Positions 31,474-64,000 of a stretch of DNA of 64,000 nucleotides are shown in pieces. The position numbers were made by a program, and so were the translations under genes. The notes under the pieces are model-generated. The model saw nothing but the letters and a program-made list of their open reading frames with translations, was not told where the DNA came from and made no database searches. Position 1 is the stretch's first letter, and every line of letters starts with the position of its first letter. The stretch lies in assembly GCF_000006445.2 (NCBI RefSeq), contig NC_006046.2:1542297-1606296 (forward strand), read 5' to 3'. This DNA comes from Debaryomyces hansenii CBS767 (lineage: Eukaryota > Ascomycota > Pichiomycetes > Serinales > Debaryomycetaceae).

Positions 31474-32356
31474 CTATATTTGTGACGCCTTCGACGTATT
31501 ACCTTCCGTTATTGTGCTTGTAGCGAGCGATTGTTCGCTCATCTCATCAAAAACCGCTTCAGAGGAAGGATTAGTACCACTTCCATCATTTTCATCATTG
31601 CCAGCCTCGTCAAGAAGTACTTCACTTTCTTGACTATACTGATTGTCTTGAGGATCATTCTCAATTTGATTCTCTATAGCTGCCTTCAATCCTTCAAATC
31701 ATTCCGCATCTTATAGACTCCCGTTTTGTAATCACCTATCCCGAAAACAATATCGGGATATTGCTTATCTGAATCCGATTTATTTATCATATGAATCATA
31801 TCAGGTTGTATTATTCTTCGTTGATCCAATGGCGGTCTTACAATTGATGGATTATCAAAACAGTTGTCCTACATCATCACGATAAAGCTGATCGATTGTT
31901 CCTGCTATTTTTCCATTAAAGTACCACTGGATAGCTTGTCCACATGCATTGCATCCCCCAATGGATAACGATAGTCTTCTGCTAAAAGTCGACTCCTGAT
32001 ACTCGATTCCCTAAGAGCATTATCAAGCGACGCAAGCTATCCGTGAATCCATCACTACTCATCTCCCTGAATTCAGCAGTAATCAATGCTCGGCTGGTAT
32101 ACACAAGAACCCGCATAAACGGCGTATTCCCTATGTCCACGGATTCCTTACTCTTGGGCACTAGTCTCTCTGAGGAGGGGTTTCGCTCGCTTCTTTCACT
32201 ACGAATCCTTAATAAGTGAGTAATCAAAAAAAATCTTGCATTTTTCCATGATATTGCGGACTCTACCATATAGTTCTGGATCTACTGTAATGTACTCGTT
32301 GCTATTACCATCGATGGTGATATCACTGCTATCTACCCCCGAAAAATACATACATG
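31474..32356 (-). pseudogene. Family B nuclease-kinase, copy B1, kinase domain deleted
   Basis: The N-terminal part is family B: MYFSGVDSSDITIDG at the start, the PPLDQRR segment, then QPDMIHMINKS and FGIGDYKTGVYKM with the PD...DYK motif. Stops and frameshifts interrupt it repeatedly (for example near 32220, 32040 and 31870). Soon after GDYK, past an FEGLKAAIE-like piece, the sequence jumps to the acidic C-terminal tail with SSEAVFDEMSEQ. About 300 residues including the whole kinase-like domain are missing. Upstream, GGGTTACG at 32408 and a TATA tract at 32429 match the promoters of the intact copies. Confidence 0.8.
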
Positions 32357-34688: not shown

Positions 34689-36470
34689 ATGTACTTCTCT
34701 GGTAAAGATATCAAAGAAATCATTGTCGAAGAGCCTTCTAGGGAAGCTATCAAAATAAATCCAACATTATTCAATAGTTTACGTGATAATAATGAACAAA
34801 GTACAAGAATATTGTTGGATATTCCATTACTAAAGATCCGAGATTATAGAGGCAAAACAAAGCAGGTCATGAAGAGCTTAGTACCTCAAAGTGATGCAGA
34901 TGTATTTGCAGGCGACATGCCATTTATGTCAGCTCTTGTTTATATCACAAATGCAATGATGAATGCCAAGTTTACAGGCTTGAGTATTGATGAGTTCAAA
35001 ACAAATTATCTTTCTCCTTTTGATAAGACTATTAAAGAATCGAAGATTCAATATCTTCCTTGTTTAAACCCAGTTTTTCCTTATCCATTGGCATATGATT
35101 GGGATGATGAGTTTGACATCCATCAATATTTCAGGCAAGATATATCTGGGTCAATTGAACGTATATAACATAGCATCTATGATTTTTACCATAGATTTGG
35201 ATATCCTCCAATTGTAAAAGCTCTTTTGAATCAGAAACAAAAATTGCGACCTGATATTATGCACTATAAGATGAGCAAGTCGGAACCTTATACAGATAGT
35301 CCTGCCTTATGTTTCGGAATAGGTGACTATAAGACAGAAAATTATTATTTATCTCAGGGATTTGAAGAATTGAAAGTAGCTATAGAAAATACAAGAACTT
35401 CAATGATTGAATTAATTTTTCCAGAGAGGGAATGGAGCCCTAGGGTGGTTTTTGCTTTGACTCTTCGCAAACATCTTTATCAGGCCTTCCTTTGTGGTAC
35501 CGATAGAGTTTTCATCTCAGATCACCAATCATTTTCAGGTTTTTTCAGATATGAAATTGTCAATGGTCAAATGACAATAGAATATTATGTCATAAACGAT
35601 CCAGAGACTGCTTTAGAAGGTATGACTTTAAGATCTGCTATAGCTGGATTCTTTTATAAGAGTGAGGAAAAAGCCTTCGATACGAAGAAAGCGCTAGCGA
35701 GGTCCCTTCTGGTGGCTAACAGTGCCAAGAGGTTTGATCCATTCTTGAATGTACTTCCCAGACCTGTTGAGCTTTTAAATAAACTACCAACTAATGAACT
35801 TCAAGGGTTGAGAAACATTGAAGAAACAGATGGCCTTGAAGATTTTCAAGTAATCTTAGACCAACCATACTGGCGAATAATTCATAACGCAGTGAAATGG
35901 TATCCTAATTTAGGATTGAAACTTCCATACACTGTGGTTGCTGAATTGTATCGCTACTCTAAATTGTTCTGGGAAGATGCAGCCAATGGTTTGTTATGGG
36001 TCAGTCTTCCTGATAAAAGAGAATATTACGAAATGTTCATTACGGAACTTTCAATTAATGAAAAAAATGCGAAATCACAATTTGCTGCAAATTTTTCAAA
36101 GCTCATTGTTTCTGGTTATTGGAATGGCGTTCCTGATCATCCAATGCATATATTTGAAGATGTAGGTGAAAAAATTCCAAGGAACGAGTGGGAAGAGGAA
36201 AAGGTGTATGAGGGTGTTAAATTAAGGCTAGAAGAACTCCATCTGTTGGGAATTAGCCATAATGATGTTAGGATGGAGAACATCCATGTTTCTGAGTCAG
36301 GTAAAATTTTGTTAGCTAATTTTGGGTTATCACAATATCCTGCAAATGAAAAGAATAAAATGAATGATTTTGATTTTTTGAACAGTGTATTCCCAACCAA
36401 TACAGACAGTGAAGATAGTGATTCTGAATGTGATATGACAATGAATATGAATGAAGACAATAGTAATTAA
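34689..36470 (+). pseudogene. Family B nuclease-kinase, copy B2, one nonsense codon and altered kinase
   Basis: One frame of 593 codons is interrupted only by a TAA at 35166-35168 (codon 160). The part after the stop stays in the same frame. It keeps the nuclease-like motif (PDIM ... D213-Y-K215) and the segment REWSPRVVFALTLRK with SDHQSFSGFFRYE. In the kinase-like domain, GISHNDVRMENIHV is intact, but the ATP-binding Lys seen as VFVK in other copies is Glu here (VAELY), and DFG reads NFG. So the gene has both a premature stop and a pseudokinase. The tail is acidic (SEDSDSECD) but lacks the FDE motif of other copies. Its upstream region also differs from the other copies. Confidence 0.85.
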
Positions 36471-37324: not shown

Positions 37325-38395
37325 TTCTCAACTCATTTCGTCAAAACTTTCCTCAGAAGGATTATCATTACATCTATATTTGTCATCTATGCCAGTATTT
37401 TCTGTGATTGAGTCTAAATTTCCTGAAAGGTTGCTGAAAGATTGTTTCCCTGACGATCCTCTAGTAGTCCTAGGAAGTATATTTTCAAATGGATCCAGTC
37501 CCTCTGTTTTACCTGCCACCTCAAAACATTTTACTAGTTTACCCTTTGCAACATATGCGTCAGACACATCCTTATATGAAAATCCCGCTATTACACTTCT
37601 TAAGGTAACGCCATACCCAACATTTTCTGGATCATTGATTGCATATAGTCTATAGTCATTTTTTCATTCACAATGTCATACCTGAAGAATCCTGAGAAAG
37701 TTTGGTGATCTGAGATAAAAATCCTATCAGTGTCGCAAAGGAATTCTTGATAAAGATATTTCCTTAAAACTAAAGCAAATAAAACCCTAGGGGACCACTC
37801 CCTATCAACAAAAACTGTAGACTTTTCAGAGATCTCAATCGCTTAGTATCCAATAGATATTGCTTGAATTCTTTTATAGTCACTTTTAATTCTTCAAATC
37901 CTCGTGCCAAATTATAGGTTCCTTTTTTATAATCACCTATAGCAAAACAAACTTCTGGAATTTGCAAATTTTTAAAAGGTCCTTTTTTCAATACATGACC
38001 CATAGCTGTTTATGCGACTTTTCTTCTATCCAATGGTGGTTTAATAATCGACTGTTTGCCAAAATAGTTGTCCATATTACCTGTATCACGATAAAGTCGC
38101 CTGATTGTACTTGTTATTTCTTCATTAAAGTAGTTTTGGATATCATCTTCCAGGTGGTTAGCATCACAGAATGGATAAGCATATTTGTCCAAGCTCGAAT
38201 CCTTTTAATAAGTGAGTATACAAAAATACTCTTGAGTTTCGAGTTTCCCTTGCCAGAAATGATAAAACCGAGTACGAACCAATTTTTATGCAAAAATTGG
38301 GTGAAAGACTTGATTGGAAAATATCGAAGAATGTATTTAGCAAGAAGTAATTGTTATCTATTACGGTATAATTAGCAGAATTGATGAACAATGAA
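37325..38395 (-). pseudogene. Family B nuclease-kinase, copy B3, kinase domain deleted
   Basis: Pieces in order on the minus strand are ETRNSRVFLYTHLLK, then YPFCDANHLEDDIQ and RLYRDTGNMDNYFG, then EVCFAIGDYKKGTYNL, then CDTDRIFISDHQTFSGFF and PRTTRGSSGKQSFSNLSGNL. The next residues are already the C-terminal tail (NPSEESFDEMS). About 70 residues are lost after THLLK, and the entire kinase-like domain is absent, as in copy B1 but with a different join. Several stops and frameshifts are present and the start codon region is gone. Confidence 0.8.
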
Positions 38396-48553: not shown

Positions 48554-50319
48554 TCAGTAAATTGGAACTTTGAAAGCATCAAAAGTGTATGTCCAAGAAT
48601 CGTAAGACATCTGGTCATAAACACAGTCATAACTGGAATTACTTTTCCAAAATGGACGAAGTGGCCATTTGCAAAGAAGCTGAGATTCTCCTCCATAGTC
48701 ACCTGAAGAGACAGTTGAATTAAGGCCGGATGGTTTCCTATCTTTTTCAACCCAATCTAAAATGGTTTCCATATTAGATTCTGGATATGGGCCTGGTTGC
48801 AAGCTATTTGTATTACAATGAGCAGCACCAGGTACTAAATAAAATTGATACCAGTTGTCAAGAGCAGTGAGCGATTCGTTGAAAGACATTTCACTGTACA
48901 TAATAGAACGAACACTTTGCCAGTAGTGAACTGAAGAAGCGGCAGGAACACTTGGATCAGATTCGCCGTGATAGTGTAACAACTTTCCTCCATTAGAGTA
49001 AAATGATGTTAAGTCAGGTATTGTGGTTTGTAAAGAATCCAAGTATCTATAGTAACCGGTGAACATCCAATCAACCAAAGTATCATAAGTAATGTTATCG
49101 AGGGATGAAAGGTTATCAATATTTAATAATTGAATAAACTTTGTAACGTATTCCCCTCCAGTGGATGGGATATTGAGCTCCCAAGATTCTGAATCTTCAC
49201 TATATTTAGTTTCACCATCACTAAGCTCAGAACCAATTTGCCAAGAAAGATAAGCTCTTTGACCAGCAGAACTTTGAAGGCCTTTATAAATTGCCTGAGA
49301 AACAGCGACTCCCTCAGCAGTAACTGTACCGTTTTGTTCGGGTTGATAAGAGGTAGTACTACCTTCCGCTCTTTTACTAAAACCAAAACCAAGGGAAGTA
49401 CTATTTTGAGCTCCACAATAATAAGGTTCTCCAATTATAGAGCTCAAATTAAATTTAAGCATACAGCGATCTGTTCTGGAAATAACTCCATCTATGCGAC
49501 CATCGAGGGAATCACAGGCAGCTATTGTAGCATTAACAATTTTACTCAATTCACATGGAGGTGGGAAGTAGTTCAAATCTTTTTCAACCATGGCAGGGTA
49601 AACATGATTGACCTGTTGTTGAGCATATCTGAAGGCCGGGGCACCGACAACAACGCCATCATACAACTCTCCATACCTTTGTATTTGACTCATACCTTCA
49701 CGGCCACCATCGGAACAACCTTCAAAGTAAGTGTAAAGCTTTTCATCATCAGACATTCCGTAGAGAACACTGGTGAGGAATTTACCGATGGTGGTCATTT
49801 CACCCAATCCTTGGTAAGAGAACATGTAAGTTGCATCCCAGTTGATAGAACCATTGCCAAAAAGAACCACCTCGTCATATGATGTATAGAAGGCATCGTA
49901 ACCAGCATCAGTGCACCACCTGCAGCACCATAGGAAAGACTACTAGTAGAAGAACTACTGAGGCTATAACCACCTCCACCAGCAACGTAAAATCTATTCT
50001 CGAAGTTAGAAGGATCCGGTAACGCATAGTTAAGAACAACCGTATCGTTTTTTCCTGTATGTGCATAAGAAACAGAGATGTTACAATAGCTGTAATTAGA
50101 ACTTTCAGCGACATTAACTTCCACAGATGTTGGAATCATTTCAATACCAAGTAAAGTCCCATTCAGAGGCAACGAGTCCCGAACATAAGAAATAGAGCAT
50201 AAATCATTAAACGAAGAGTTAGTGCTACTGTTATTTGAAGATAAATCTCTTTTGAATATAGGGCTAGTACTTGTAATTGTAGCAAATAAAGTGACAATAA
50301 TCAACAATTTCATTATCAT
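48554..50319 (-). CDS. Tannase/feruloyl esterase family protein, frameshifted
   Basis: This is a secreted serine esterase, about 588 codons in two frames. The N-terminus MIMKLLIIVTLFATITS is a signal peptide followed by a Lys-Arg site. The first frame runs from 50319 to about 49912 (GGGGYSLSSSSTSSL, YGAAGGA). The second frame continues from TDAGYDAFYTSYDEV to the end at 48554. The catalytic set of the family is present: nucleophile in GCSDGGREG, Asp in YHGESDPSVP and His in PGAAHCNTN, with the Cys pair of the CS-D-HC motif. The two frames join near 49911-49913 by a one-base change, so this is a recent break or an error. It probably cleaves gallate or hydroxycinnamate esters of plant matter. 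Confidence 0.82.
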
Positions 50320-51269
50320 TCCTAATTATATTAAGTAAATAATATTGAAATTTAAACAGTTACATCTTACTTGCACCTTTATATATTTTTATTTTCTTGT
50401 CTCTCATGGGATTTGACATGGCTTTTTCAAAACAAGGCTAACAATTTTTGATTAGTATACATATGCATTATCTTTGTTCTTTAAATGCCGATCGTTTGTA
50501 TATTTCTCGGATAAACGTCGGTCCGGTACTTATAGCCGAGGTGCATAGAATCCTCATCTTAAAGTTCACCGTCAAAGGCCAACTTCAATTAATCTGTCCC
50601 AGACCAATATTATTTGAATGACAAACATTTTCTCATCATCGCAGGGCTGTGGGATTATGAATAAGCTCCTTTCCAGAAGCTAACATTATTATTGAAGCAG
50701 CAATAGCAAGCAAACTCTTCACCCCTATACAAAAAGCTTAAACAGGCCTATTTACATTTCAAAGCTCCATGACGCAATGGTCCTTTTGAATCAAAACGAA
50801 AAAGAAGAAGTCTCATAGAACATTATTATATTATAAAGCCACTAGCCAGTTTTCGTAGGATAGTTACCAAAAGATGGACATTGAAATCATCATCTTGAAG
50901 TAATTTCTCTAAAGGGAATTCATTTCAGTATTTATTTGATTATGTATTATTGGAATCAGGTAGACATAGATCTCCTCATTTGTCTCCAGAATCCTTAGAT
51001 ATGCATTCATTTGTAAATGATCCCTAAGGTCGTATGATTACCTTAGGAGTTAATAAAATGAACTATATAATAATATATAGTTGGATGCAAGGGTATGAGA
51101 AAGGGGGAAGATAACCTGGTAGTTGATAAACATAAGGAGGTACTCTGAAAGGTAAACAAAACCAGTTTGTACTTTTAGCGTGGGATTGAACAGTTATCGC
51201 GGGGTTGCAGGGTATATTCGACTATGTAACGAAAACGTCGAAATTTCTATTCAAACAAAGGTTCCATTG
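50320..51269. promoter_or_regulatory. Tannase upstream region and R element copies
   Basis: No gene is seen. CGGTCCGG at 50518-50525 is a candidate zinc-cluster site about 200 bases before the tannase-like start. A degenerate R element piece lies at 50728-50805 (CATGACGCAATGGTCC, AATCAAAAC). A clearer reverse copy lies at 51111-51216 and ends GGGGTTGCAGGGTATA. Confidence 0.45.
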
Positions 51270-51705
51270 AAGATAGAGATAAAGATCTTGCTTTCGAAGA
51301 CGTTAAACAAAGTCAACAAATATTAGTCTCAAGAACTCTATCCTTAAAAATTAAATACATTCTTGGGGTATGTGGTATTTCAAGCAGTTACTAAGGGTAC
51401 GAAGGATGTATGATGGGAGACTTAAAAACATTGCCAAGTTGGACAGTCTACTTCAATAATATTCAAGGCAGTGAATTAAGTACGATGACAAACAATCAGA
51501 AAATTGGTTCATTATGTGTTGTAACCCGTCTTGCATCAATTGGTGATAGATTTTCAAGACTTTGTTCGATGGGTTTGGGTTATTCTAGCAATTAATAGAG
51601 GTTGGTGCCGCAAACTTTGGAAAGTTTATAGGGTCAAGAATTGTAATTGGGGTAGGTGTTGATATCCCTTAGGTTAGAGCTTTTCTTGCTGATAGAAGTA
51701 GGCTA
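51270..51705 (+). pseudogene. Lac12-type permease fragment
   Basis: The fragment aligns with the N-terminal part of the intact permease at 46179-47819. LAFEDVKQSQQ parallels LTLEDVTPK, LKIKYILGVCGI parallels LKLNIYLGCAVF, and MMGDLKTLPSWTVYF parallels MMSNLQTLPSWEGYF. IGSLCV and IGDRFSRL follow. Stops interrupt it, and it ends where an R element begins at 51710. Confidence 0.8.
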
Positions 51706-51770: not shown

Positions 51771-51904
51771 TGTTCTCCCCCACTTTTTTTAGAATTGTTA
51801 TCGCACACTATAGTTCACGGACACAACCACCGCGCGCAATGTCGCCGGTGCAATGTCTCAAATGCGCGTAAAAATCAACCGAGCACTTTAATTGTCTTTT
51901 ACTT

Positions 51905-52259
51905 AGGCACTACCACAACTTGCAAATTGTGGTCTTTCAATGCGAAAGTGGTAAAGTCGCTCTGTAGGATTGCAGGTTACACAGTGTGATACCGTCATCC
52001 ATTTGATCAATTTATGAATATATAAATAGGGTAGCCCTCCCCTTTGAGAATACATATCGAAATCGCTTATTCGATTATCTGTCTTCTTTTATTTTCCACT
52101 ACATCGATATCTTCCTGTTTATCATCTGCGGTATTACTTGGGCTTTTTTTTCGTGATGTTCGCATTTCGAAAACCCCACAAAATCACAATACTTCCTTCA
52201 ATGAGAATCTGAAACAAATATTTCTTTTATGCTAATTTTATTCGATTTCCTATAAATTG
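51905..52259 (+). promoter_or_regulatory. Family A upstream region (copy A1)
   Basis: This holds the conserved blocks of the family A upstream repeat: CACAACTTGCAAATTGTGG, GATTGCAGGTTACACAGTG, TGATGTTCGCATTTCGAAA, ACCCCACAAAATCACAAT and ATATTTCTTTTATGCTAA, ending at the gene's start. A TATA-like TATATAAATAG lies at 52018-52028. It is shared with 63050-63461 and with orphan copies elsewhere. Confidence 0.7.
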
Positions 52260-54278
52260 ATGGAGACTCACAAGAACACAAAAGTACCGAATTTTTATTC
52301 ATCACAATTAATTAAGATGAACAACAATACTTTTCGTAATAATATTAGGAGATATATTTTAGGAGATGACGAGGATACTGGTATGGATATTGACATAGAT
52401 ATTGATAAATTTGAGATTACGAAATTTGACTACAGAAAACTATTCGATAAGAGAGCGATTCAGAATGTGAGCTATCAAGAAATTTTACGCAAAATGTTTG
52501 AAATTGAGAATGTATTTGACTTAGATATGGATCATGTGAGGCATTATAAAGATCATCCAGATAAATGGAAAGAATTATTTATTTTCTTCTGTGTTATGCC
52601 ATTCACGGAGTACGAGTTCCAAGGCAAAGATGGAAATTTGTTGAATCCCGATACTCTTCATATTGCTTGTCCGAGTGATGCTACAGACAACCTTCTAATT
52701 GGAACCTTTTCAGATATAGAATTTGAATCACTGAACCAAGAAATATTGGAAGATAGACTTGCTGCTAATTTGCAGTGTATTTTGAAAACTGACCTATTCT
52801 CTAATACTTTTAGCGAAGATCAAAGAAAAAAATTAATTACAAATTTGCTCTATGTTGGTTTTCAATCAAAGCATAAACTTGTTAAACATATTGGGTCGAA
52901 GGCTGAAGCAACTTACAGAGATAATTTTCTGATATATTTGTTTCAACCCATAAGTGACTATGTTTCAGCTTTATTAGGCTTTGAAATAGAAGTTGAAGAG
53001 AGAAATACAGTTGGTCAGACAGGAGTGCAAACCAGAGTACCTCACACAACAAATGATTTATTTTATTCTCATCCGGATATTGTAGCTTATACGGAGAAAA
53101 TACATTGCCGATCATTAGCTATTGTGGAGGTCAAAAAATTACCACTTTTGAAGGGAAACAAAGTGATAAACTTTAATGATTCAAAAATGGTTAGATTCTT
53201 CGTTCAAGTTGTCGCGGAAATGTTTTCTAACCACACTAACAAAGGCATGCTAACAGACTCTTATATAACAATATTGGTTGAAATAGATATCGAGAGGAGT
53301 TTGGAGGCAATAAAGCATAGTACAGAGCTTTTGGATTCCAGCAAGCACATAGCTCTCAATTATAAGATCTTGGATTGTCACTCGTCGGGACTTACTTTGA
53401 GAGGTGGACTCATTTCATTTATCTATGAGGCATTCAATGTGAATGAAATTCGCTTAAATGAGGTTAAGAGAGGATTAGAAGAGATCTATAAGTATATTCG
53501 TAAGACAGACGAAGAATACTTGACTTATATTGATGGACTAGCCGACAAATATGAAGCAGCTTATAGAAATTTCTGTATCGATGCTTATAGGACTAAAGAG
53601 CAACGCCTTTACCTTTCTGATACAAGTATAAGTCTTGGAAAGTTTGAGAAAATTGATGTGCAAAGTGGGTTTAGTTTCAATTCTCAACTTTTCATAGTAG
53701 ATATTAAAGAGATAAAAGATTATTTAAGAGAAAATATTGGGATAGGCGACAAATTGATTGTTAAGATCTTTGATCCAATCAAGGCCAAGAGAAAACATGA
53801 TAGTTATACGGTCGACAAAACTGATATTTTCGGCAAATGCCGAAGAGCATATCTGTGTGAGAAGACAGCCTATGAAAAGCTAATAACTAATCTAAAATTT
53901 AACAGCATTTACATTGATCAGCAATGTGTTTTTGGTAAGTTTAATATCGCCGAACACTACCACGCTTTGGGACCATTTCTCATATTAAAGTATTTGGGTC
54001 AAACGAAATGTCCATTGGACGAGGAAACTTATAAAAAGGCTGAAGAACAATTAGAAATAATCCACTATAATGGGATAATACACGGGGACATTAATTTGAG
54101 AAATATTCTCTATTACAAAGGGAAAGTCTATTTTATCGATTTTGGGTATTCTAATTATGATGATAACGACGAAAAGCGTTCTGGGCCTGTAACTGCTAAT
54201 GAAGAGACTAAGAAGAGTGAACACAGAGAATTGTGCGATGTATTTGAACAGCCTATTCCAGAAAAATATAGATATTAG
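52260..54278 (+). CDS. Family A nuclease-kinase fusion protein, copy A1
   Basis: This is an intact 672-residue protein. Residues 1-60 are charged and include an Asp repeat (MDIDIDIDKFEITKF). A PD-(D/E)XK nuclease-like motif is seen as HPD273 followed after 16 residues by E290-V-K292 on the strand LAIVEVKK. The C-terminal kinase-like domain has the ATP-binding K502 (LIVKIFD), a helix Glu in CEKTAYEKL, the catalytic loop HGD610-INLRN615 and D627-F-G. The C-lobe is very short, as in small RIO/Bud32-like kinases. The start is ATG 52260; ATG 52317 (MNNNTFRNN), conserved in copy A2, is the alternative. No signal peptide or membrane segment is seen. The architecture resembles CR/Crinkler-type nuclease-kinase effectors; the role in this yeast is unknown. 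Confidence 0.75.
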   Translation: METHKNTKVPNFYSSQLIKMNNNTFRNNIRRYILGDDEDTGMDIDIDIDKFEITKFDYRKLFDKRAIQNVSYQEILRKMFEIENVFDLDMDHVRHYKDHPDKWKELFIFFCVMPFTEYEFQGKDGNLLNPDTLHIACPSDATDNLLIGTFSDIEFESLNQEILEDRLAANLQCILKTDLFSNTFSEDQRKKLITNLLYVGFQSKHKLVKHIGSKAEATYRDNFLIYLFQPISDYVSALLGFEIEVEERNTVGQTGVQTRVPHTTNDLFYSHPDIVAYTEKIHCRSLAIVEVKKLPLLKGNKVINFNDSKMVRFFVQVVAEMFSNHTNKGMLTDSYITILVEIDIERSLEAIKHSTELLDSSKHIALNYKILDCHSSGLTLRGGLISFIYEAFNVNEIRLNEVKRGLEEIYKYIRKTDEEYLTYIDGLADKYEAAYRNFCIDAYRTKEQRLYLSDTSISLGKFEKIDVQSGFSFNSQLFIVDIKEIKDYLRENIGIGDKLIVKIFDPIKAKRKHDSYTVDKTDIFGKCRRAYLCEKTAYEKLITNLKFNSIYIDQQCVFGKFNIAEHYHALGPFLILKYLGQTKCPLDEETYKKAEEQLEIIHYNGIIHGDINLRNILYYKGKVYFIDFGYSNYDDNDEKRSGPVTANEETKKSEHRELCDVFEQPIPEKYRY

Positions 54279-55239
54279 AAGAATGATTATACCCTACAAT
54301 TGGGCGCGATCTATATTCGTATTTCTTAGGAATGGAATAGAATATTAGGTTTAGGCGAGAGGGATGCAATACCGCTTCAACTCAACTATAACCAGTAAGC
54401 CCATGATCAAACTGGTTTTTATTTACTTTTGAGAGTAACATGACGTCATGATACTTCCAAACAAATAAACAGAGCAAAAAATAGAATATTGATAATTTTA
54501 AATAGCCATGCTCCAATCAATAGAAGGACTATGTATCATATTATTTAAATTAATAATGCACATGAAATTGTTAATGCTTAGCGGTTTGCTTCTAACAAGT
54601 GAAATAGTCGCAATTAATTGTTCCTAGAAAAATGTAACCAGTTGCGCATGCAGAGGCATCCAATATGTGGACCATAGATAGGTATTCAATAAACCATTCC
54701 TATGCATGAAAGCTATTTTAAACTGGTTGAAGTTAGCACAAATGACTAGAAAGGCATAAATCAAAACTTAACGTGTGCAACTCTATGATAGATAAAATGC
54801 AACATTGTAAAATTCCAATATAAAGTATCACTTCTATTTGACACAACCATAACTTGCATTTTGTTGTTTCTGATGGGTCGCACGCTACGATTCGCAGGTT
54901 ACGCTTTATGGGATCGACATGCTATTAATCAATTAACTATGTAAAGTACAGTAGTCCCCTTGAAACCAGCATATCCAGCAATTACGAATTTGATGCAAGC
55001 AAGTTATGTAGTAAGTCATTTCTAGCTAATAAATAGTTAACAGAGAAAGTGTGGAAGTGCTAGGGAGTTGAAAGATGAGAGTGATAGTTGTAAGGCATTA
55101 GATAAGTTCCAGGCAGGTGAATGCTTATACCGAGAAGGAAAAACAAGCACAACACTTGTGTCGAGTCTTTGGTCAAATAATACCTGGCAAATATCAAGAT
55201 TCAAATGAATAAGATAAAAAAATAGCTTGTGAGTATGCA
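54279..55239. repeat. Gap with R element and family A core repeat
   Basis: An R element copy starts at 54289 (TATACCCTACAATTGGG). Its second half lies at 54395-54475 (AAACTGGTTTTTATTTAC, ATGACGTCAT, AACAAATAAACAGAGC). At 54846-54985 there is a copy of the family A upstream core (ACAACCATAACTTGCA, GGTCGCACGCTACG, GCAGGTTACGCT, GTACAGTAGTCCCCTT) that is not followed by a family A gene on the plus strand. No gene is seen. Confidence 0.6.
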
Positions 55240-57171
55240 TTATCTTCGTGATGGTTTTGAAGCAATATCTTCTATCGTTATTTGGGTACCAAAAGTTCCT
55301 GAACTCCCTTCATCAAATACTTCTTCACTAGAAGAATTACTATCATTTCCATATTTGTCATTTTTGTCTGCTCTATCAGCAGGTATAGCTTCGCTTTTAA
55401 CATTAACTTGATTGGCATGCTTAAAACTTTCATTAGAACCATTTGCTCTCAATATGTATTCAAGAGTCTCAAAATCATTCTTCTTGTGTTCTTCATTATT
55501 TGTGTAGTCCGATAATCCAAAATCTATCAAAGATATCTTACCAGAAACAGACACATGAATGTTGGCTAGCCTAACATCATTATGCGAAATTCCTATCAGA
55601 TGAAGCTCTTCGAGTCTTGATTTGATAACTTTGTACACTTCTTTGTTATTCCACTTTTCTTCTGGGACTTCCTTCCCAAGGTATTCAAATATATGCATCG
55701 GATGATCAGAAAGCCCGTTCCAATAACCAGAAACAAGGAGCTTTGGGAAATTAGAAGCGAATTCTGACTTAGCAATTCTTTCATTAATTAAAAGCTCGTT
55801 GAAAAACATGCCATAATACCCCTCTTTTTCCGGTATCTCCAAACACATCAAACTATTCTCTTCCCACAATCGACTAGAGTAGTAGTATAGTTTGACAAAA
55901 ACTGGCGATGGAAGTTTCAAATCAGGATAAAATTCTGCGGAATCGTATACAACTCGACAATATGTGTTACCATCAATAGCATCAAAGTTATCACTGGCGT
56001 CGTTTTCTTTTACCGAATCTAAGTTGCCTGAAAATCCACGTCTCGGTAATTTTCCCGAAGATCCAGAAGGGTCTCGAGGACGAACGTTGAAAAATGGATC
56101 CAGCTCTTCAAGTTTTTTTATCCCGGTGTTGTTGGCTATATCAAAACTTTTCATCAACCTGGCCTTCGTATCAGCTGTATCGGCAACATTCTTATAAAAA
56201 AATCCTGCTATAGCCGACCTTAAAGTGATGCCATTCTCCACAGTTTCTGGATTATTAATGACATAGTAGTCTATAATCATTTCGCCATCCACTATTTCAT
56301 ACCTAAAGAATCCTGAAAATGTTTGATGGTCTGAAATAAGAATCCTATCGGTTCCACAGAGGAAAGCTTGGTAGATATATTTGCTTAGAACCAAAGCAAA
56401 TAATACTCTAGGCGACCACTCCCTACCTGGAAAAAAATCCCCAATTGAATGCAGCCTCAATCTTCTTCGGTTCAGAATAGCTGTCTTGAATTCTTCAAAG
56501 CCTTGTGTCATTTTATAAACTCCCGTTTTGTAATCACCTATCCCGAAAACAATTTCCGGATATTGCATATCTGAATCCGACTCGTTTTTCATACGAATGA
56601 TATCAGGTTGTATCCTTCTTTTGCGATCTAGTGGGGGTCTTATAATTGATGGACTGCCAAAGTAGTTGTTCGTATCACCTACATCACGATAAAGTCCCTT
56701 GATTGGGATTGCTATTTCATTAAAGTATTCTTGGATAGCTTGTTCTATATGCATTGCATCTCCCCGTGGGTAAGCATATTCTTGTGCTAAAGGTCGACGG
56801 CAAATATTCGATTCTTTAAGAGCAATATCAAGCGGAGCAAGATACCTATCCTTGAAATCATCACTACTCATCTCCCTAAATTCAGCAGTAATCAATGCAC
56901 GACTAGTATACACAACAATAGGTATAGAAGGCATATTCCCTAGACCCACTGATGCATTACCCTTAGATACTAGTTTCTCTGCACGACGTTCCTGCCCATC
57001 TTCATTACCCCCAATCTTAAGCAAGTGAGTGTCCAAAAAGACTCTTGTATTTAGTTCCCTGTTATTGAGAACTCTAATAAATAGTTCAGGATTTATTGTA
57101 ATGCACCGGTTGCTAGGATCATCGATAGTGATAGTATCACTATCTACCCCTGAAAAATACATTCGTGGCAT
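55240..57171 (-). CDS. Family B nuclease-kinase fusion protein, copy B4
   Basis: This is an intact 643-residue protein from ATG 57171; ATG 57162 (MYFSGVD), where other copies start, is equally possible. The order is a header of about 180 residues with RVFLDTHLLKI; a PD-(D/E)XK-like motif P189-D190 followed by G-D213-Y-K215-T; the family segment REWSPRVLFALVLSK with SDHQTFSGFFRYE; a linker; and a kinase-like domain with K427 (VFVKLYYY), NELLINE as the helix Glu, HND532-VRLAN537 and D550-F-G. It ends in an acidic Ser-rich tail with SSSEEVFDE. All kinase residues are present. It converges on copy A1. No secretion signal is visible. The function is not established. Confidence 0.78.
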   Translation of the reverse strand: MPRMYFSGVDSDTITIDDPSNRCITINPELFIRVLNNRELNTRVFLDTHLLKIGGNEDGQERRAEKLVSKGNASVGLGNMPSIPIVVYTSRALITAEFREMSSDDFKDRYLAPLDIALKESNICRRPLAQEYAYPRGDAMHIEQAIQEYFNEIAIPIKGLYRDVGDTNNYFGSPSIIRPPLDRKRRIQPDIIRMKNESDSDMQYPEIVFGIGDYKTGVYKMTQGFEEFKTAILNRRRLRLHSIGDFFPGREWSPRVLFALVLSKYIYQAFLCGTDRILISDHQTFSGFFRYEIVDGEMIIDYYVINNPETVENGITLRSAIAGFFYKNVADTADTKARLMKSFDIANNTGIKKLEELDPFFNVRPRDPSGSSGKLPRRGFSGNLDSVKENDASDNFDAIDGNTYCRVVYDSAEFYPDLKLPSPVFVKLYYYSSRLWEENSLMCLEIPEKEGYYGMFFNELLINERIAKSEFASNFPKLLVSGYWNGLSDHPMHIFEYLGKEVPEEKWNNKEVYKVIKSRLEELHLIGISHNDVRLANIHVSVSGKISLIDFGLSDYTNNEEHKKNDFETLEYILRANGSNESFKHANQVNVKSEAIPADRADKNDKYGNDSNSSSEEVFDEGSSGTFGTQITIEDIASKPSRR

Positions 57172-57224
57172 AATGTTATAGATATTCAATAAGGTGTTTA
57201 TCGTTCATCCCTTAATCTTTGATT

Positions 57225-57233
57225 GGGTTACCC
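57225..57233. promoter_or_regulatory. GGGTTACCC element of family B promoter
   Basis: GGGTTACCC lies 54 bases upstream of ATG 57171, preceded by TCATCCCTTAATCTTTGATT. The same arrangement is found upstream of B5 (62099-62109, GGGGTTACCCC) and in worn form upstream of B1 (32408). It contains TTACCC, the core of the yeast Reb1 site. Confidence 0.45.
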
Positions 57234-57284
57234 TTCCTTGAAATTGATTATGTAAGTCCACATGAGAGCAGCCACAGCATATTC

Positions 57285-57554
57285 AGTAAAATGAGTGCAA
57301 TGAAAATATTGAAGCCAAAATACTTGTATCCGACAAGAGTGTTATATGCAAAGTTGGCCGGTCGGTTTTTCTATACGTTTGCAAAGTATAGCAGGAATGC
57401 AACAATCGAAGAGGTTATTCATAGACCAAAGCCACTACTGGTCGCACAAGCTATGCATGTCATGATGCAGACCTACGTTCTAGTTGTCAGGGATCCTACT
57501 CCGAGTTTGAGAACTGTTCACCACAGGTTCAGCATGGCTATTCCAGGTTTTAAG
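57285..57554 (+). pseudogene. Fragment of putative TLH, N-terminal part
   Basis: TRVLYAKLAGRFFYTFAK, ATIEEVIHRPKPLLV and a following helix align with TQVIYANYASRFFYTFAK and IIEEVVTSPTDEVV of the copy at 58153-59728. It has no proper start and stops where an R element begins (CTATACCCTGCAATTGGG at 57557). Confidence 0.6.
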
Positions 57555-57556
57555 AC

Positions 57557-57605
57557 TATACCCTGCAATTGGGTGGAAGCGTGATATGACACCGTTCTAC
57601 AGTTA
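57557..57605 (+). repeat. R element copy
   Basis: The copy starts CTATACCCTGCAATTGGG, then TGGAAGCGTGATATGACA and CCGTTCTACAGTTATC. It abuts the helicase fragment on its left with no transition. Confidence 0.55.
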
Positions 57606-57656
57606 TCATTATAACACATAAAAAACCCATATACATCCAATAGATATCTATAATAA

Positions 57657-57968
57657 CAAGTTACCTTCGTATTCTCAAATGCTGAGAAGAATAAATATTG
57701 AATATGAGGTCTATCCTACACGGTTCAAGTTTTCAAGATTTGCGAATATCGGTTTGGATTCTGAATTTTAAGAAACTTTCTGAGAAAAAGTGCGAAAACT
57801 TACAAATGTGATTTCTCACTTTCTCAGAATTTTCCTAAACTTGTTTATAATGCCTCTTATATACTACCTGATGATAGAAATATCACTGGTCATTATTGGG
57901 AATTGATGTATACGGAGACCTTACAAGATATTAATGAAAGGTATTGGAACCCTGACGAGCCTAATTAA
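57657..57968 (+). pseudogene. Unrecognised gene tail
   Basis: Two open pieces in neighbouring frames read like one damaged protein end: SQMLRRINIEYEVYPTRF with FANIGLDSEF (57657-57771), then CDFSLSQNFPKLVYNAS with GHYWELMYTETLQ and ERYWNPDEPN (to 57968). I do not recognise the family. Confidence 0.35.
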
Positions 57969-58152
57969 AATTTGTGCTAAAAAATATGAAAAATCATAAA
58001 ACTGAGTACTATTTTCAAAACTTTTAGAAATTTGAAAGTAATAGTTTTAGGCCAAAATTGAGATATGTTTAATGTCCGTCTTTTAGAATGTTAGAATTGA
58101 AACATAACTTCATATATAGTCTATATGTGCCACAATGCTAATAATTATTTAG
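57969..58152. other. Short gap
   Basis: AT-rich sequence with no feature seen. Confidence 0.3.
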
Positions 58153-59728
58153 GGTGATTTTGAGAACCGAAACCATCGTTTTGTGTTGCGCTTTCGCCTT
58201 ATACTCATAAGGTCACATGCATTTAACGCGTGCACGAATGGAATCTCGACGACAGATGAGCTGTCCTTTTTTGAAAATATTGAGCCCTGCATCTTTTGCA
58301 ACAAAATGGAAGCAATACGCATTGTTGAGATTGATGGGGTTTCTGTTTTAACACATGACAGAAACACTCTTAACCCTTTTTCCGAGAGATTTAACAAGAG
58401 ATATTTAGTGAATGCCATGGATTGTTCCATTATCCGTGATGACATTCTATCAACAATTCATAACCACTTCGATAACCACTCAAAAGACCATTATGTGCGA
58501 AAAAGGGTTGTTCCCATCAATTACTACTCTGAAATAGCGGGAGTCAAGGAATCTAAACTCAATGTTTGCAAGATTTGTTTTAACCATTGCGCGCTGAACT
58601 ACATTAATCAACATCTCAAGAAAGAGCATAGCGTTAAGAGAAATTTCCAACGGCACGTCTTCAGAACAACCGGGTATGCAATTCCCAACCAAAAGTGCGG
58701 CTTTTCCTATTTATACCGCGAAAAAGAAGACACCAAACCGCCCACTTCAATGACAACCATCGAAGGCCCGCTTACCCATCTCCGGCACGAGGACAAGTTC
58801 CTCCGCACAATCAACGCCAACCTATATTACGGAAAGGGATACCCGCAGTACCTACACAGCGAAAACAAGGAAGAAAGCATACCGATGTTTGAGGCCGTCA
58901 AGAAGTATATTCTCCAGGACATACCACATTTGAAGGGCACGCATCCCATTTACAATCGGATGTTGCGAGAGGGCATATTGAAGGTTCCCGTTCTCTTTAC
59001 GACCCAGGTGATCTATGCAAACTATGCCAGCCGTTTTTTCTACACGTTTGCCAAGTTATGCGATAACCGAATCATCGAGGAAGTGGTGACCAGTCCCACC
59101 GACGAAGTGGTGAAGCGAGCGGTGATGGAGACGATCGAGAAGTATATTGTGGCGGAAGAAGACACGACTGAAATGTTTATGAAAGTCGTGATTATCTCGT
59201 TGATGCTTCCCGATGACCGGTTTGCGCAGTCGAAGGTGCGAGCCAAAATCTTTGACGGCATCAACTATTTCTTGAAGTTGGCTATAGCAGACTATATGTT
59301 GATGAGAAACAACGCCAAGGAGATTATCAAAAAACTGGGAGAATCTAGCATACCAGGCATTTGAGTCCACACGGTCATGCAACCATAAATTCAATAGGAC
59401 GTTGCCGGCTTTCCAGACGATAGTCGACCAGCAGGATAACCGAAAGGTGATGATCGGCTCGTTCTGGTTCATTACGAGCGAACTCGACAAGTTAGTTAGA
59501 TGCTTGGTCCGAGAATACCATAACACCGTTTGAAAGTTGCTACCAGAAGGAATGCTGAAGGTGGACGAGCGATATGAGGAGTTTCTGAAGCACGTCAAAG
59601 ATGTGTTCAGGGGCACGGATTTAGGCTATAGTGTTTTCTATGGACAAGCGAACTCAACAAGCTTTCGTATCAGCGACGCACGAACGAACAAGCTGTATGC
59701 AATAAATGGAAGAATCAAAAGTATATGA
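58153..59728 (+). pseudogene. Longest copy of putative TLH N-terminal region, broken
   Basis: The frame is open from 58153 to 59364; the first ATG (58306) lies inside the conserved part. A zinc finger of the C-x2-C...H-x4-H kind is seen in LNVCKICFNHC and YINQHLKKEH. Its form recalls the OrsD/DUF3505-type finger found in fungal subtelomeric helicases and some mobile elements. Helical sequence follows (FTTQVIYANYASRFFYTF, RAVMETIEKYIV). Near the A-run at about 59329 the frame shifts, and NLAYQAFESTRSCNHKF to REYHNTV continues in another frame. A TGA at 59531-59533 follows, then EGMLKVDERYEEFLKHV to the end. Base composition is GC-richer than in neighbours. No helicase core is present. The TLH identity is inferred from the finger, paralogous fragments and subtelomeric setting. 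Confidence 0.55.
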
Positions 59729-60104
59729 GAAGCATGTTTGACCAGTCTAGTAGCTTAGCTTGAACATCTTTGTGTGCGTTTTTTCAGCTATGGCTATCCA
59801 TTCTGGGTGACGAGGTTGCTCACGTTATGATGAAATAGAAGTATTACTTCGTTTCTCTGACATACATAATTTATTAACTAGTAAATATTCAATTGTATCA
59901 TGGTGAATCACGATGACATGGAATTTCTATCATAAAAATATATAGACTTTCTGCAAAGTTCCTCTGCCCCATTGTTTATAGTTTTGAATTATGACATAAT
60001 TTTATTTGATATCTTAAGCTTAATAAGTCATACCACTGTAAAACACAAGAATCCAAGTACACATCCTTCAAAAATACTTCTGAACTGGTCCGAAGTCATT
60101 TGTA
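59729..60104. other. Gap before copy B5
   Basis: AT-rich sequence, terminator side of B5. No feature seen. Confidence 0.3.
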
Positions 60105-62030
60105 TCAAGTTTCATCATATTTCGAATTGAAATCAACCTTAGTAGACCCTGGGGTGTCATCAGACTCTAAAACCAGTTCGTCAAAGACTATTTCGTCACT
60201 GGAATTTGCATGATCATTCCATCCACTTTCATTATTTTCGTTTTTAGCCAAGACAACATCACGTATTTTATCCTCCCCAGAAATCCCATAACCAGTAATT
60301 GGGACAAGCTCATCAAGGGCTTCAAAGTCTCTTTTTTTCTGCTCTTCACTACTTGGGTAAAAAGCTAACCCAAAATCTATCAAAGTGACCCTTCCCGATA
60401 TTGAAACATGTATATTGTCGAGCCTTATATCATTATGCGAAATTCCCAACAGATGAATTTCCGCGAGTCTCTCCTTAACTACTTTATGCACCCTAAATTT
60501 ATCCCATTCAGTAGATGGTATTTCTTCTCCCAAATCTTCAAATATATGCATCGGCTGGCTTGGAATACCATTCCAGTATCCAGAAACTATAAGCTTTGCG
60601 AAGTTTGCAGCAAACGACGAATTCGCAAGCATCTCATTAATTTCAAGCTCATTGACGTACATGTCGTAGTAACTATCTTTATCTGGAAAATTTTCTTGAG
60701 CCTGCTCAGGATAGTTGTACCATTTAACAAAGACTGTAGACGGAAGCAACAATCCCAAATTAGGAAAAGATGCAGCAGAATTATATATTATGCGACAAAA
60801 TGTGTTACCTCGAATGGCATCAAAGTCAACTTCATAGCTTTCTTCTATTGTTATCAATCTTTCTCGAAGTTGACTTCCAGAAATCTTGCTACGTTTCCGT
60901 TTACGACTTGGTGTGGGTTCTTCCACAAGTCGAGGAAGCACATTCGCTAATGGATCTGGTCCTTTGGTCTTCTGACTTATTTCAATTAGTCCTGCGAATT
61001 TCTCTTTTGTACTGAGCGCCTCTGTATTATCCTTATAGAAAAAGCCTGCTATCGCTGACCTTAGAGTTATGCCATGTTCCACAGTCTCGGGATCATTAAT
61101 AACATAGTAGTCTATGATCATTTTTCCATCATCCATAATCTCATATTTGAAAAACCCCGAAAATGACTGATGATCTGAGATAAACACTCTGTCTGTCCCA
61201 CAGAGAAAGGCTTGATAAAGATATTTTCTTAAAACTAATGCGCATAAAACTCTAGGCGACCATTCTCGATCTTCAAATAAGTGCTGGTTTTCATGCAGTC
61301 TCAATTGTTTCAAGTTCAAACGCTTTTCTACGAAACCCGTTATAGCTAATTTCAATTCTTGAAGTCCTTTAGTTAAAAAATAGTTTTCTGTCTTATAATC
61401 TCCTATCGCAAAGCAAATATCTGGATTTCGTCGAGTTGATGCCTTATCATAAGACACATGGACAATATCGGGCTTGAAGTTTGGAATTGTCAACAACGGA
61501 GGTAAGATTGAAGCGTGACCAAAATGGTGGTATTCATCCAAGATGTCACGATAAAGTCTAGTAGTGGTATCTTCTATTTGATGAGAAAAATACAGCTGAA
61601 TATCATCTTCCACATGTCTGGCATCTCCCAAAGGATAAGTATACCTCTTTGATAGCAAGTCTTCGCTGAGATTTGAATTCTTAATAACCTTATCAAGGGG
61701 AGACAAATACGTATTTTTGAATTCATCACTGCTGATCTCTCTAAATTCTGCCGTCATCATCGCTTTCGTAACATAATTCAGTGCCAGCATCACAGTCGTG
61801 GATCCAGTGGAAACTGAAGCATTATGCTTGGATATTATATGTTCCAACGTAGGTAATTTTTGATTATGTGAGATATTTCTTATTTTCAAAAGGTGAGTGT
61901 CTAAAAAGACCCTTATGTTTTGTTCATTGTCATCTTGAACCCTAGCATATAATGATGGATTAATCCTAATGCATTTATTTGCGGGGTCATCATACGTAAT
62001 ATTGTTACTATCTTCGCCCGAAAAGTACAT
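60105..62030 (-). CDS. Family B nuclease-kinase fusion protein, copy B5
   Basis: This is an intact 641-residue paralogue of the gene at 55240-57171, starting MYFSGEDSNN. The nuclease-like motif is P187-D188 followed by G-D211-Y-K213-T. REWSPRVLCALVLRKYLY and SDHQSFSGFFKYE follow. A basic cluster RKRKRSK in the linker could be a nuclear localisation signal. The kinase-like domain has VFVKWYNY, NELEINE, H532-ND534-IRLDN539 and D552-F-G, so all catalytic residues are kept. The tail is acidic and has SSDEIVFDE. The promoter keeps GGGGTTACCCC and a TATA box. It is divergent from copy A2. Confidence 0.78.
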   Translation of the reverse strand: MYFSGEDSNNITYDDPANKCIRINPSLYARVQDDNEQNIRVFLDTHLLKIRNISHNQKLPTLEHIISKHNASVSTGSTTVMLALNYVTKAMMTAEFREISSDEFKNTYLSPLDKVIKNSNLSEDLLSKRYTYPLGDARHVEDDIQLYFSHQIEDTTTRLYRDILDEYHHFGHASILPPLLTIPNFKPDIVHVSYDKASTRRNPDICFAIGDYKTENYFLTKGLQELKLAITGFVEKRLNLKQLRLHENQHLFEDREWSPRVLCALVLRKYLYQAFLCGTDRVFISDHQSFSGFFKYEIMDDGKMIIDYYVINDPETVEHGITLRSAIAGFFYKDNTEALSTKEKFAGLIEISQKTKGPDPLANVLPRLVEEPTPSRKRKRSKISGSQLRERLITIEESYEVDFDAIRGNTFCRIIYNSAASFPNLGLLLPSTVFVKWYNYPEQAQENFPDKDSYYDMYVNELEINEMLANSSFAANFAKLIVSGYWNGIPSQPMHIFEDLGEEIPSTEWDKFRVHKVVKERLAEIHLLGISHNDIRLDNIHVSISGRVTLIDFGLAFYPSSEEQKKRDFEALDELVPITGYGISGEDKIRDVVLAKNENNESGWNDHANSSDEIVFDELVLESDDTPGSTKVDFNSKYDET

Positions 62031-62098
62031 TCATGACATGATAATATGTGAAGTATTGAGGTGCTGTGGTTGTAATTTCATCCCTTATTTATTGATCT

Positions 62099-62129
62099 GG
62101 GGTTACCCCGAGTTTGATTATATAATAAA
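62099..62129 (-). promoter_or_regulatory. Family B promoter: GGGGTTACCCC and TATA tract
   Basis: GGGGTTACCCC at 62099-62109 is followed by GATTATATAATAAA at 62116-62129, about 70-100 bases upstream of the B5 start. Both elements recur upstream of B1, and the first recurs upstream of B4. Confidence 0.5.
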
Positions 62130-62274
62130 CCGTCTTGAACGAGTTGGTAAGTGTTACAAAAGACAAACGGCTTATGAGCTGCATACGTACTGCATGTGAC
62201 TTTTCGCCTGCACTTGGAGATTTCCCATAGTTAAGGTGGTATACTGCAATGTCGTAGTGCAAATGTCGCAATGT

Positions 62275-62325
62275 TTGCTAAACTAGTAACTAAGACAAGG
62301 TGGGGAGAGAAAAGTTGTAGGCATT
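62275..62325 (+). repeat. Repeat shared with 30985-31030
   Basis: TAAACTAGTAACTAAGACA and AAGGTGGGGAGAG match the other site with few changes. It is followed at 62330-62376 by a shortened family A core (ACAACTTGCAAATTGTTG, GATTGCAGGTTAC) and then directly by an R element. Confidence 0.6.
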
Positions 62326-63461: not shown

Positions 63462-64000
63462 ATGAATAACAACACTTTTCCTAATAGTATTAGGAGATAT
63501 ATTTTGGAAGGAGGCGGTGAAGACAAGGACATGGATATTGATGTTGATGCTGATATTGATCTATTTGAGATTACCAAATTCAACTATAGGACATTATTCG
63601 ATAAAAGTGCGCATCAAAATATCAGCCATACCGAAATGGTGTATAAATTTTTTGGAATTGAAAATATATCTGATGTGGATTTGGAGCCTCAAAGTCAAAA
63701 ATGGTACTTTAAAAACCATCCAGATGAATGGAGAGAATTATTTATCTTCCTTTGTGACATGCCGTTTACAGAATATGAATTTCAAGGCAAAGATGGAAAA
63801 TTATTGAATCCCGATAGTCTTCGTGCTATTGGTTCCAGTCATGGTACAGACAATGTCCTTATTGAAACTTTTTCTGAACTTGAATTTGAATCATTCAACA
63901 AAATAATTCCGGAAGGTAGATTGGCATTTAAGTTGGAAAATATCTTGAAAACTGACATATTCTCAAGTAATTTTAAACAAGATGAACATAAAAGAAACTA
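63462..64000 (+). CDS. Family A nuclease-kinase fusion protein, copy A2 (cut by window edge)
   Basis: The frame is open from the ATG at 63462 to the end of the window (179 codons). MNNNTFPNSIRRYILEG parallels residues 20-36 of copy A1, then the Asp repeat MDIDVDADIDLFEITKF, then HPDEWRELFIFLCDMPF and EYEFQGKDGKLLNPDSL, all close to A1 but clearly diverged. The nuclease and kinase motifs would lie beyond the window, so whether it is intact is unknown. In-frame stops precede the ATG, which fixes the start. Confidence 0.8.
   Translation, partial: MNNNTFPNSIRRYILEGGGEDKDMDIDVDADIDLFEITKFNYRTLFDKSAHQNISHTEMVYKFFGIENISDVDLEPQSQKWYFKNHPDEWRELFIFLCDMPFTEYEFQGKDGKLLNPDSLRAIGSSHGTDNVLIETFSELEFESFNKIIPEGRLAFKLENILKTDIFSSNFKQDEHKRN

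What the first reader, a model, noticed from the sequence alone, without database searches (positions are those of the whole stretch)
52260..62030. Two yeast gene families fuse a PD-(D/E)XK-like nuclease to a small kinase
Families A (A1, A2) and B (B1-B5) share no obvious sequence but the same plan: a P-D ... (D/E)-x-K strand in the first half and a compact kinase-like domain at the C-terminus with Lys, Glu, H-x-D...N and DFG all kept in A1, B4 and B5. Seen directly: the motifs and their spacing. Known: nuclease-kinase fusions are described among eukaryotic CR/Crinkler effectors and have been linked to selfish elements. Inference: these could be selfish, competitive or genome-conflict genes expanded at a yeast chromosome end. 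I know of no described system of this kind in budding yeasts.
Basis: partly seen in the sequence, partly recalled or inferred. Interest (0 to 1): 0.9.

Follow-up and report, generated by a model that had tools for sequence, protein, structure and literature searches.

The report
Nuclease-kinase gene families at yeast telomeres
A food yeast carries, near most of its chromosome ends, two expanded gene families whose proteins join a probable DNA-cutting domain to a small kinase, the same layout as the known fungal 'spore killer' Spok proteins, which makes them good candidates for selfish or defence genes in budding yeasts.

The parts
52260..54278 (+). A1, uninterrupted 672-aa nuclease-kinase gene of family A (table 12). 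N-terminal domain about 1-190, putative PD-(D/E)XK region about 216-395 (D273, E290, K292, Q316; TLR motif 379-381), Bud32/RIO-like kinase about 453-672 (K502, E534, H608, D610, N615, D627)
55240..57171 (-). B4, uninterrupted 643-aa nuclease-kinase gene of family B; DUF3698 then kinase
60105..62030 (-). B5, uninterrupted 641-aa nuclease-kinase gene of family B; DUF3698 about 181-285 (D188, D211, K213), kinase about 390-585; KRKRSK basic stretch at 377 in the linker
63462..63998 (+). A2, N-terminal 179 aa of a family-A gene, cut by the end of the assembled chromosome
34689..36470 (+). B2, family-B copy split by an in-frame TAA (ORFs 34689-35168 and 35259-36470)
31638..32348 (-). B1, degraded family-B fragment (11 stops in the match)
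   Evidence: C4:1573934-1574644
37418..38195 (-). B3, family-B fragment in three pieces
   Evidence: C4:1579714-1580491
51904..57239 (.). A1-B4 block duplicated at the left end of contig C3 (95% over 5379 bp)
58541..62281 (.). B5 and neighbouring sequence, duplicated at C4 left (96% over 3755 bp) and, in shorter stretches at 91-97%, at C2L, C3L, C5R, C6R, C7R

Best explanation
Families A and B are two distantly related families of proteins, most likely intracellular, in which a PD-(D/E)XK-type nuclease domain is fused to a compact Bud32/RIO-like kinase. Most likely they work like Spok proteins: the nuclease can damage DNA, and the kinase of the same protein, or of a sibling copy, restrains it, so that cells with the gene are protected and cells that lose it (or an invading genome) are harmed. 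Shown here: gene structure, kinase fold, conservation of both sets of residues, joint subtelomeric expansion, purifying selection. Inferred: nuclease activity, its restraint by the kinase, and that the benefit is selfish retention or conflict.
Against: No Pfam or solved PD-(D/E)XK nuclease was matched by sequence. The A1 nuclease region is unresolved and fold lists were filled by kinases. At the 90% level B has no conserved D..[DE]xK combination, and at 85% it has a second one (E225-x-K227). SPOK's Cys cluster is absent (0 of 36 A, 0 of 41 B); QxxxY was seen near the site in only 2 of 36 A and was not tested in B. The third off-pattern copy (C5:584 kb) and one database protein (P0011) have intact nuclease residues and a changed kinase HxD, which a strict own-protein antidote would not tolerate unless siblings protect in trans. 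The nuclease-altered B copy at C6:1753 kb shows no relaxation of that domain (dN/dS 0.12-0.31 vs 0.33-0.35 in controls, dS near saturation). Ten A copies are interior and divergent from A1, which fits a non-conflict role as well. No phenotype exists.
Confidence: 0.45

Rival explanations
1. Intracellular defence: nuclease-kinase proteins that cut invading DNA (for example cytoplasmic linear plasmids or mobile elements), the kinase acting as sensor or switch, expanded at chromosome ends like other immune repertoires.
For: Many broken copies beside copies under purifying selection; PADLOC kinase models PD-T4-6 and MAD6 match, weakly and only around the kinase catalytic loop.
Against: No partner gene, sensor domain or known defence system was seen attached; kinase-loop similarity is generic.
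Confidence: 0.25
2. Ordinary subtelomeric gene families with a non-conflict role (a kinase with a DNA-binding or structural pseudo-nuclease domain), expanded only because chromosome ends recombine.
For: Several 2-5 kb blocks are shared between ends at 90-97% identity, as expected of subtelomeric exchange (other blocks are 71-79% alike). 9 of 42 B rows lack at least one of D188, D211/E211, K213, two of them through gaps. No nuclease family was matched.
Against: The putative nuclease residues are near-invariant in A between groups only 25-32% identical; 36 of 39 frames of this genome keep both residue sets.
Confidence: 0.2
3. Crinkler-type (CR) effectors sent into other cells, with the same REase-kinase C-terminus.
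For: REase coupled to kinase is about one sixth of CR C-termini (PMC5289972 passages).
Against: No Crinkler model among the Pfam matches of 15 A and 25 B members; by eye the N-termini of A1 and B5 show no signal-peptide-like hydrophobic stretch (no predictor was run).
Confidence: 0.07

Closest known systems
Spok spore killers (Podospora, Fusarium FuSpoks)
   Same: Single protein, order N-terminal domain - PD-(D/E)XK nuclease - kinase; kinase thought nearer to eukaryotic-like kinases than to classical protein kinases (PMC6660238); several copies in dynamic genome regions
   Different: No sequence link was tested (no Spok sequence at hand); no Cys/His cluster before the kinase (0 of 36, 0 of 41); QxxxY in only 2 of 36 A. 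Close Spok relatives are listed from Sordariomycetes and one Eurotiomycete, wider ones from 'various Ascomycota'; S. cerevisiae is said to lack them (PMC9972908)
CR/Crinkler REase-kinase effectors (e.g. CRN8)
   Same: REase + kinase in the C-terminal half; broken copies reported
   Different: No Crinkler header found; the primary paper (Zhang et al. 2016) is not held and was seen only through passages of PMC5289972 and PMC6131194
DUF3698 (PF12479)
   Same: Family B is this family (E 6e-40 to 3e-47 for B4 and B5)
   Different: Pfam's line gives no function; here its extent (B5 about 181-285) coincides with the putative nuclease core
Bud32/RIO kinases
   Same: Compact kinase; best fold and NCBIfam matches of A1
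   Different: Scores far below the NCBIfam equivalog cut-offs; fused to another domain
RNase L
   Different: Recalled: its RNase domain follows the kinase and is of another fold
Pandoravirus DUF5898 protein A0A2U7UEV6
   Same: Foldseek alignment of 533 columns with B5
   Different: rmsd 13.5, TM 0.24; DUF5898 is a kinase-clan family (PMC9758233 passage); a lead only

Membership tests
Eukaryotic-like protein kinase fold | Kinase fold with N-lobe Lys and Glu, HxD, Asn, DFG Asp | tested here: met
PD-(D/E)XK nuclease | Asp at start of one strand, (D/E)-x-K on the next | tested here: inconclusive
   Residues conserved; strand order right in the B5 model, A1 model unresolved
PD-(D/E)XK nuclease | Fold or sequence match to a known member | tested here: inconclusive
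   Pfam scans of 15 A and 25 B members and PDB profile searches gave none; fold lists filled by kinases; the domain alone could not be folded (both jobs used)
DUF3698 | Pfam model above gathering score | tested here: met
   B4 136.4, B5 157.7 bits against 25; all 25 B members of alignment A2 match
Spok | Order N-domain, nuclease, kinase in one protein | tested here: inconclusive
   Kinase shown, nuclease probable
Spok | Cys/His cluster upstream of kinase | tested here: not met
   0 of 36 A and 0 of 41 B
Spok | Killing by nuclease, resistance by kinase | not testable with these tools
   needs experiment
Spok | Sequence homology to SPOK | not tested
   no Spok sequence was available
Crinkler/CR | N-terminal header domain | tested here: inconclusive
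   No Crinkler model among the Pfam matches (a weak AbiJ_NTD4 match, E 0.0077, is below its cut-off); N-termini poorly modelled

The most novel reading that the evidence does not exclude
D. hansenii and its relatives carry two linked families of single-gene poison-antidote elements, Spok-like nuclease-kinases, that have colonised almost every chromosome end: the first such system in budding yeasts. Copies with altered nuclease residues and an intact kinase act as suppressors.
Probability: 0.3. Interest if true: 0.85.

Novelty: new variant of a known kind. Interest (0 to 1): 0.62.

Why it matters
If right, it extends the Spok/CR nuclease-kinase plan to budding yeasts, gives a function hypothesis to DUF3698, and offers a culturable yeast in which toxin and antidote activities of one protein could be separated. 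It would also explain part of the large gene turnover of D. hansenii as genetic conflict rather than nutrient adaptation.

Tried and rejected
Rejected: 'A and B unrelated' (kinases homologous; nuclease regions share a short collinear TLR element: hhalign score 28.2, 0 of 200 column shuffles reach it, best shuffle 26.4; marginal). Rejected: the bare motif as evidence (chance-level). Rejected: fungal kinase family PF17667 as a label: the search of the genome listed 14 matches, none at an A or B copy, and it is not among the matches.

Led nowhere: solved-structure profile searches with the nuclease regions alone (A: 4 matches, all PLK4, best E 0.41; B: 3 matches, nitrogenase 0.059 and 0.096 and an HNH endonuclease 0.93, all taken as chance); viral contigs (20 and 29 stretches fitted a pattern, none a relative); the third protein search, with the A alignment, returned 18 proteins, all at least 51% identical to A1, so the spread of the interior A type in other yeasts is untested (only the 7,995 candidates sharing most words were scored). 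DUF3698 in papers: 0. That no such system is described in budding yeasts rests (listings) and on passages of PMC6660238, PMC12693581, PMC9972908 and PMC12941216 only. In no paper was more than passages seen.

PADLOC kinase hits (PD-T4-6, MAD6, MkoA) lie around the kinase loop and were not taken as membership.

Full report
Where it is. The window is the last 64 kb, to the last base, of contig C4 (1,606,296 bp) of an assembly of 12,181,948 bp in 8 contigs. Table 12 was used for most analyses; searches used table 11.

The genes. A1, B4 and B5 are uninterrupted frames of 672, 643 and 641 aa. B1 (11 stops), B2 (one TAA) and B3 (three pieces) are broken; A2 is 179 aa and runs off the contig.

Nuclease half. 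In one protein the pattern D..[DE]xK is not remarkable: 15 instances in A1 against a mean of 21.5 in 200 shuffles, 14 in B5 against 14.2. In alignments it is. Of 36 A proteins (19 from this genome, 17 others), 35 keep D273, 35 E290, 35 K292, and E290-x-K292 is the only [DE]xK that follows a conserved Asp within 40 residues at the 85 or 90% level, D266 being an alternative first Asp. Of non-gap B rows, 35 of 40 keep D188, 39 of 41 D211 (one more has Glu), 38 of 41 K213 (that 42-row set holds B5 twice, with and without its first Met; one search used 41). In B no combination reaches 90%, and at 85% a second one, E225-x-K227, is conserved too. The B5 model gives helix 136-162, strands 167-170, 188-193, 202-211, helices 218-239 and 258-276, strands 280-284, 290-297, 303-310 (model numbering, one less than the protein). 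D188 falls just before one strand and D211-x-K213 at the end of the next, the arrangement expected (from general knowledge) of PD-(D/E)XK enzymes; block means of pLDDT from 181 to 310 are 65-90 except 55 at 241-250, and 49-79 before that from 131. DUF3698 covers about 181-285 of B5, the putative core. Against: no Pfam or solved PD-(D/E)XK nuclease was found by sequence; the A1 model is below 50 at 196-417; fold lists were filled by the kinase. I therefore call the nuclease probable.

A and B nuclease regions share a short collinear element (A1 SGLTLRGGLISFIYEAF, B5 HGITLRSAIAGFFYK), P 0.002. None of 200 column-shuffled controls reaches its score, though the best came close (26.4 vs 28.2). Of six other region pairs the kinase pair gave P 3.7e-15 and the five mismatched or N-terminal pairs 0.28-0.74.

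Copies in the genome. Searches list 65 and 73 match rows, lower bounds that include pieces and cross-family kinase matches. Near-full-length frames in the fetched stretches: 19 A and 20 B (one B frame is cut by the edge of its stretch). Nine A copies are close to A1 (59-100% identity); 8 of those 9 lie within 62 kb of a contig end. Ten are divergent (about 25-35%) and interior. 15 of 20 B frames lie within 60 kb of an end. Counting fragments, 12 of 14 ends have a match within 30 kb (none at C3 right and C7 left; at C1 right only a 67-aa piece). All 8 subtelomeric close A copies have a B match within 2.8 kb (one of these a B fragment); the interior one (C4:757 kb) has none. In the protein database 5 of the 17 A clusters share a contig length with B clusters (5,333; 14,232; 123,721; 361,878; 471,239 bp), which suggests the linkage holds in other isolates; this is inferred from equal lengths only. 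Several blocks of 2-5 kb are shared between ends at 90-97%, so subtelomeric exchange explains the spread.

Selection. Median dN/dS 0.29 (A) and 0.34 (B) over pairs with dS 0.05-1.5 (37 of 171; 59 of 190; pairs are not independent). By domain A 0.28/0.26/0.19 (54, 32, 23 pairs) and B 0.38/0.29/0.20 (121, 76, 42 pairs) for N-terminal/nuclease/kinase. Of the 39 frames, 36 keep both residue sets. The A copy at C3:910 kb has lost D, E and K together. Its nuclease dN/dS is 0.38-0.49 against 0.16-0.24 in controls, but its kinase is somewhat relaxed too (0.24-0.47 against 0.17-0.33), and it is the exception in 7 of 13 columns conserved in all but one of 14 proteins, so the triple loss is partly general decay. 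The B copy at C6:1753 kb lost D188 and K213, yet shows no relaxation there (0.12-0.31 against 0.33-0.35; dS near saturation). The A copy at C5:584 kb keeps the nuclease residues and has HxN, as P0011 has LxE: results against a strict own-protein antidote.

Distribution. Of the 86 B hits, those with an organism name are Debaryomyces (hansenii, tyrocola, fabryi), Priceomyces carsonii or Scheffersomyces xylosifermentans, plus two 'Staphylococcus equorum' MAG proteins that are probably yeast contamination. Of the 17 A hits three bear a name, all Debaryomyces.

Known systems. SPOK3 has three domains (about 40-170, 210-400, 490-700), a PD-(D/E)XK motif at 219-240, QxxxY at 294-298, a Cys/His cluster and a kinase with Asp 667; K240A removes killing, D667A removes resistance (PMC6660238, passages). 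SPOK1 with the kinase mutation is toxic through DNA damage in E. coli and S. cerevisiae, and baker's yeast is said to lack Spok genes (PMC9972908, passages). [quoted passage not shown] A and B share the plan but lack the Cys cluster (0 of 36; 0 of 41), and A lacks the QxxxY in 34 of 36; a conserved Gln does follow (Q316 in 35 of 36 A; Q273 in 32 of 42 B rows). They are filed as Spok-like in plan; membership is not claimed. I saw no report of such genes in budding yeasts in the searches listed of a limited open-licence library, and 282 Spok3 homologues from 'various Ascomycota' were not open to inspection. D. hansenii is known to have many subtelomeric pseudogenes and expanding families of unknown function (PMC2876123, PMC4055711, passages).

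Verdict. Real, coherent, beyond chance; kinase fold clear, nuclease probable; selfish or defence role plausible and directly testable; not categorically new.

Noticed in passing
58306-59364 (+): ORF with weak OrsD similarity (E 0.025 for the longer frame 58183-59364), itself a repeated family: 23 matches in the genome, near chromosome ends like A and B; longer open frames at C5:9901 (with a TAA in the match) and C6:2294904.
   Followed up: partly
48554-50319 (-): Tannase gene split over two overlapping frames (49795-50319 and 48554-49825): looks like a frameshifted copy.
   Followed up: no
51243-51672: Stretch with a short ORF (51410-51595) that by eye resembles the sugar-transporter ORF 46179-47819; 77-79% similar to stretches at four other A/B loci on C2 and C6.
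   Followed up: no
P0028 and P0035 (protein database): DUF3698 proteins labelled Staphylococcus equorum MAG, 89% and 53% identical to B5: probably yeast DNA in bacterial bins.
   Followed up: no
B5 residue 377; B5-like copies: Basic KRKRSK stretch in the linker of B5, a possible nuclear signal; a basic run was found there in 9 of 41 B proteins, B5-like ones and P0032.
   Followed up: partly
C3:354-362 kb, C3:908-918 kb, C4:1067-1075 kb, C5:582 kb, C6:1105 kb, C6:1217 kb (L017-L022): Ten interior, divergent family-A genes, several in tandem; their spread in other yeasts is unknown.
   Followed up: partly
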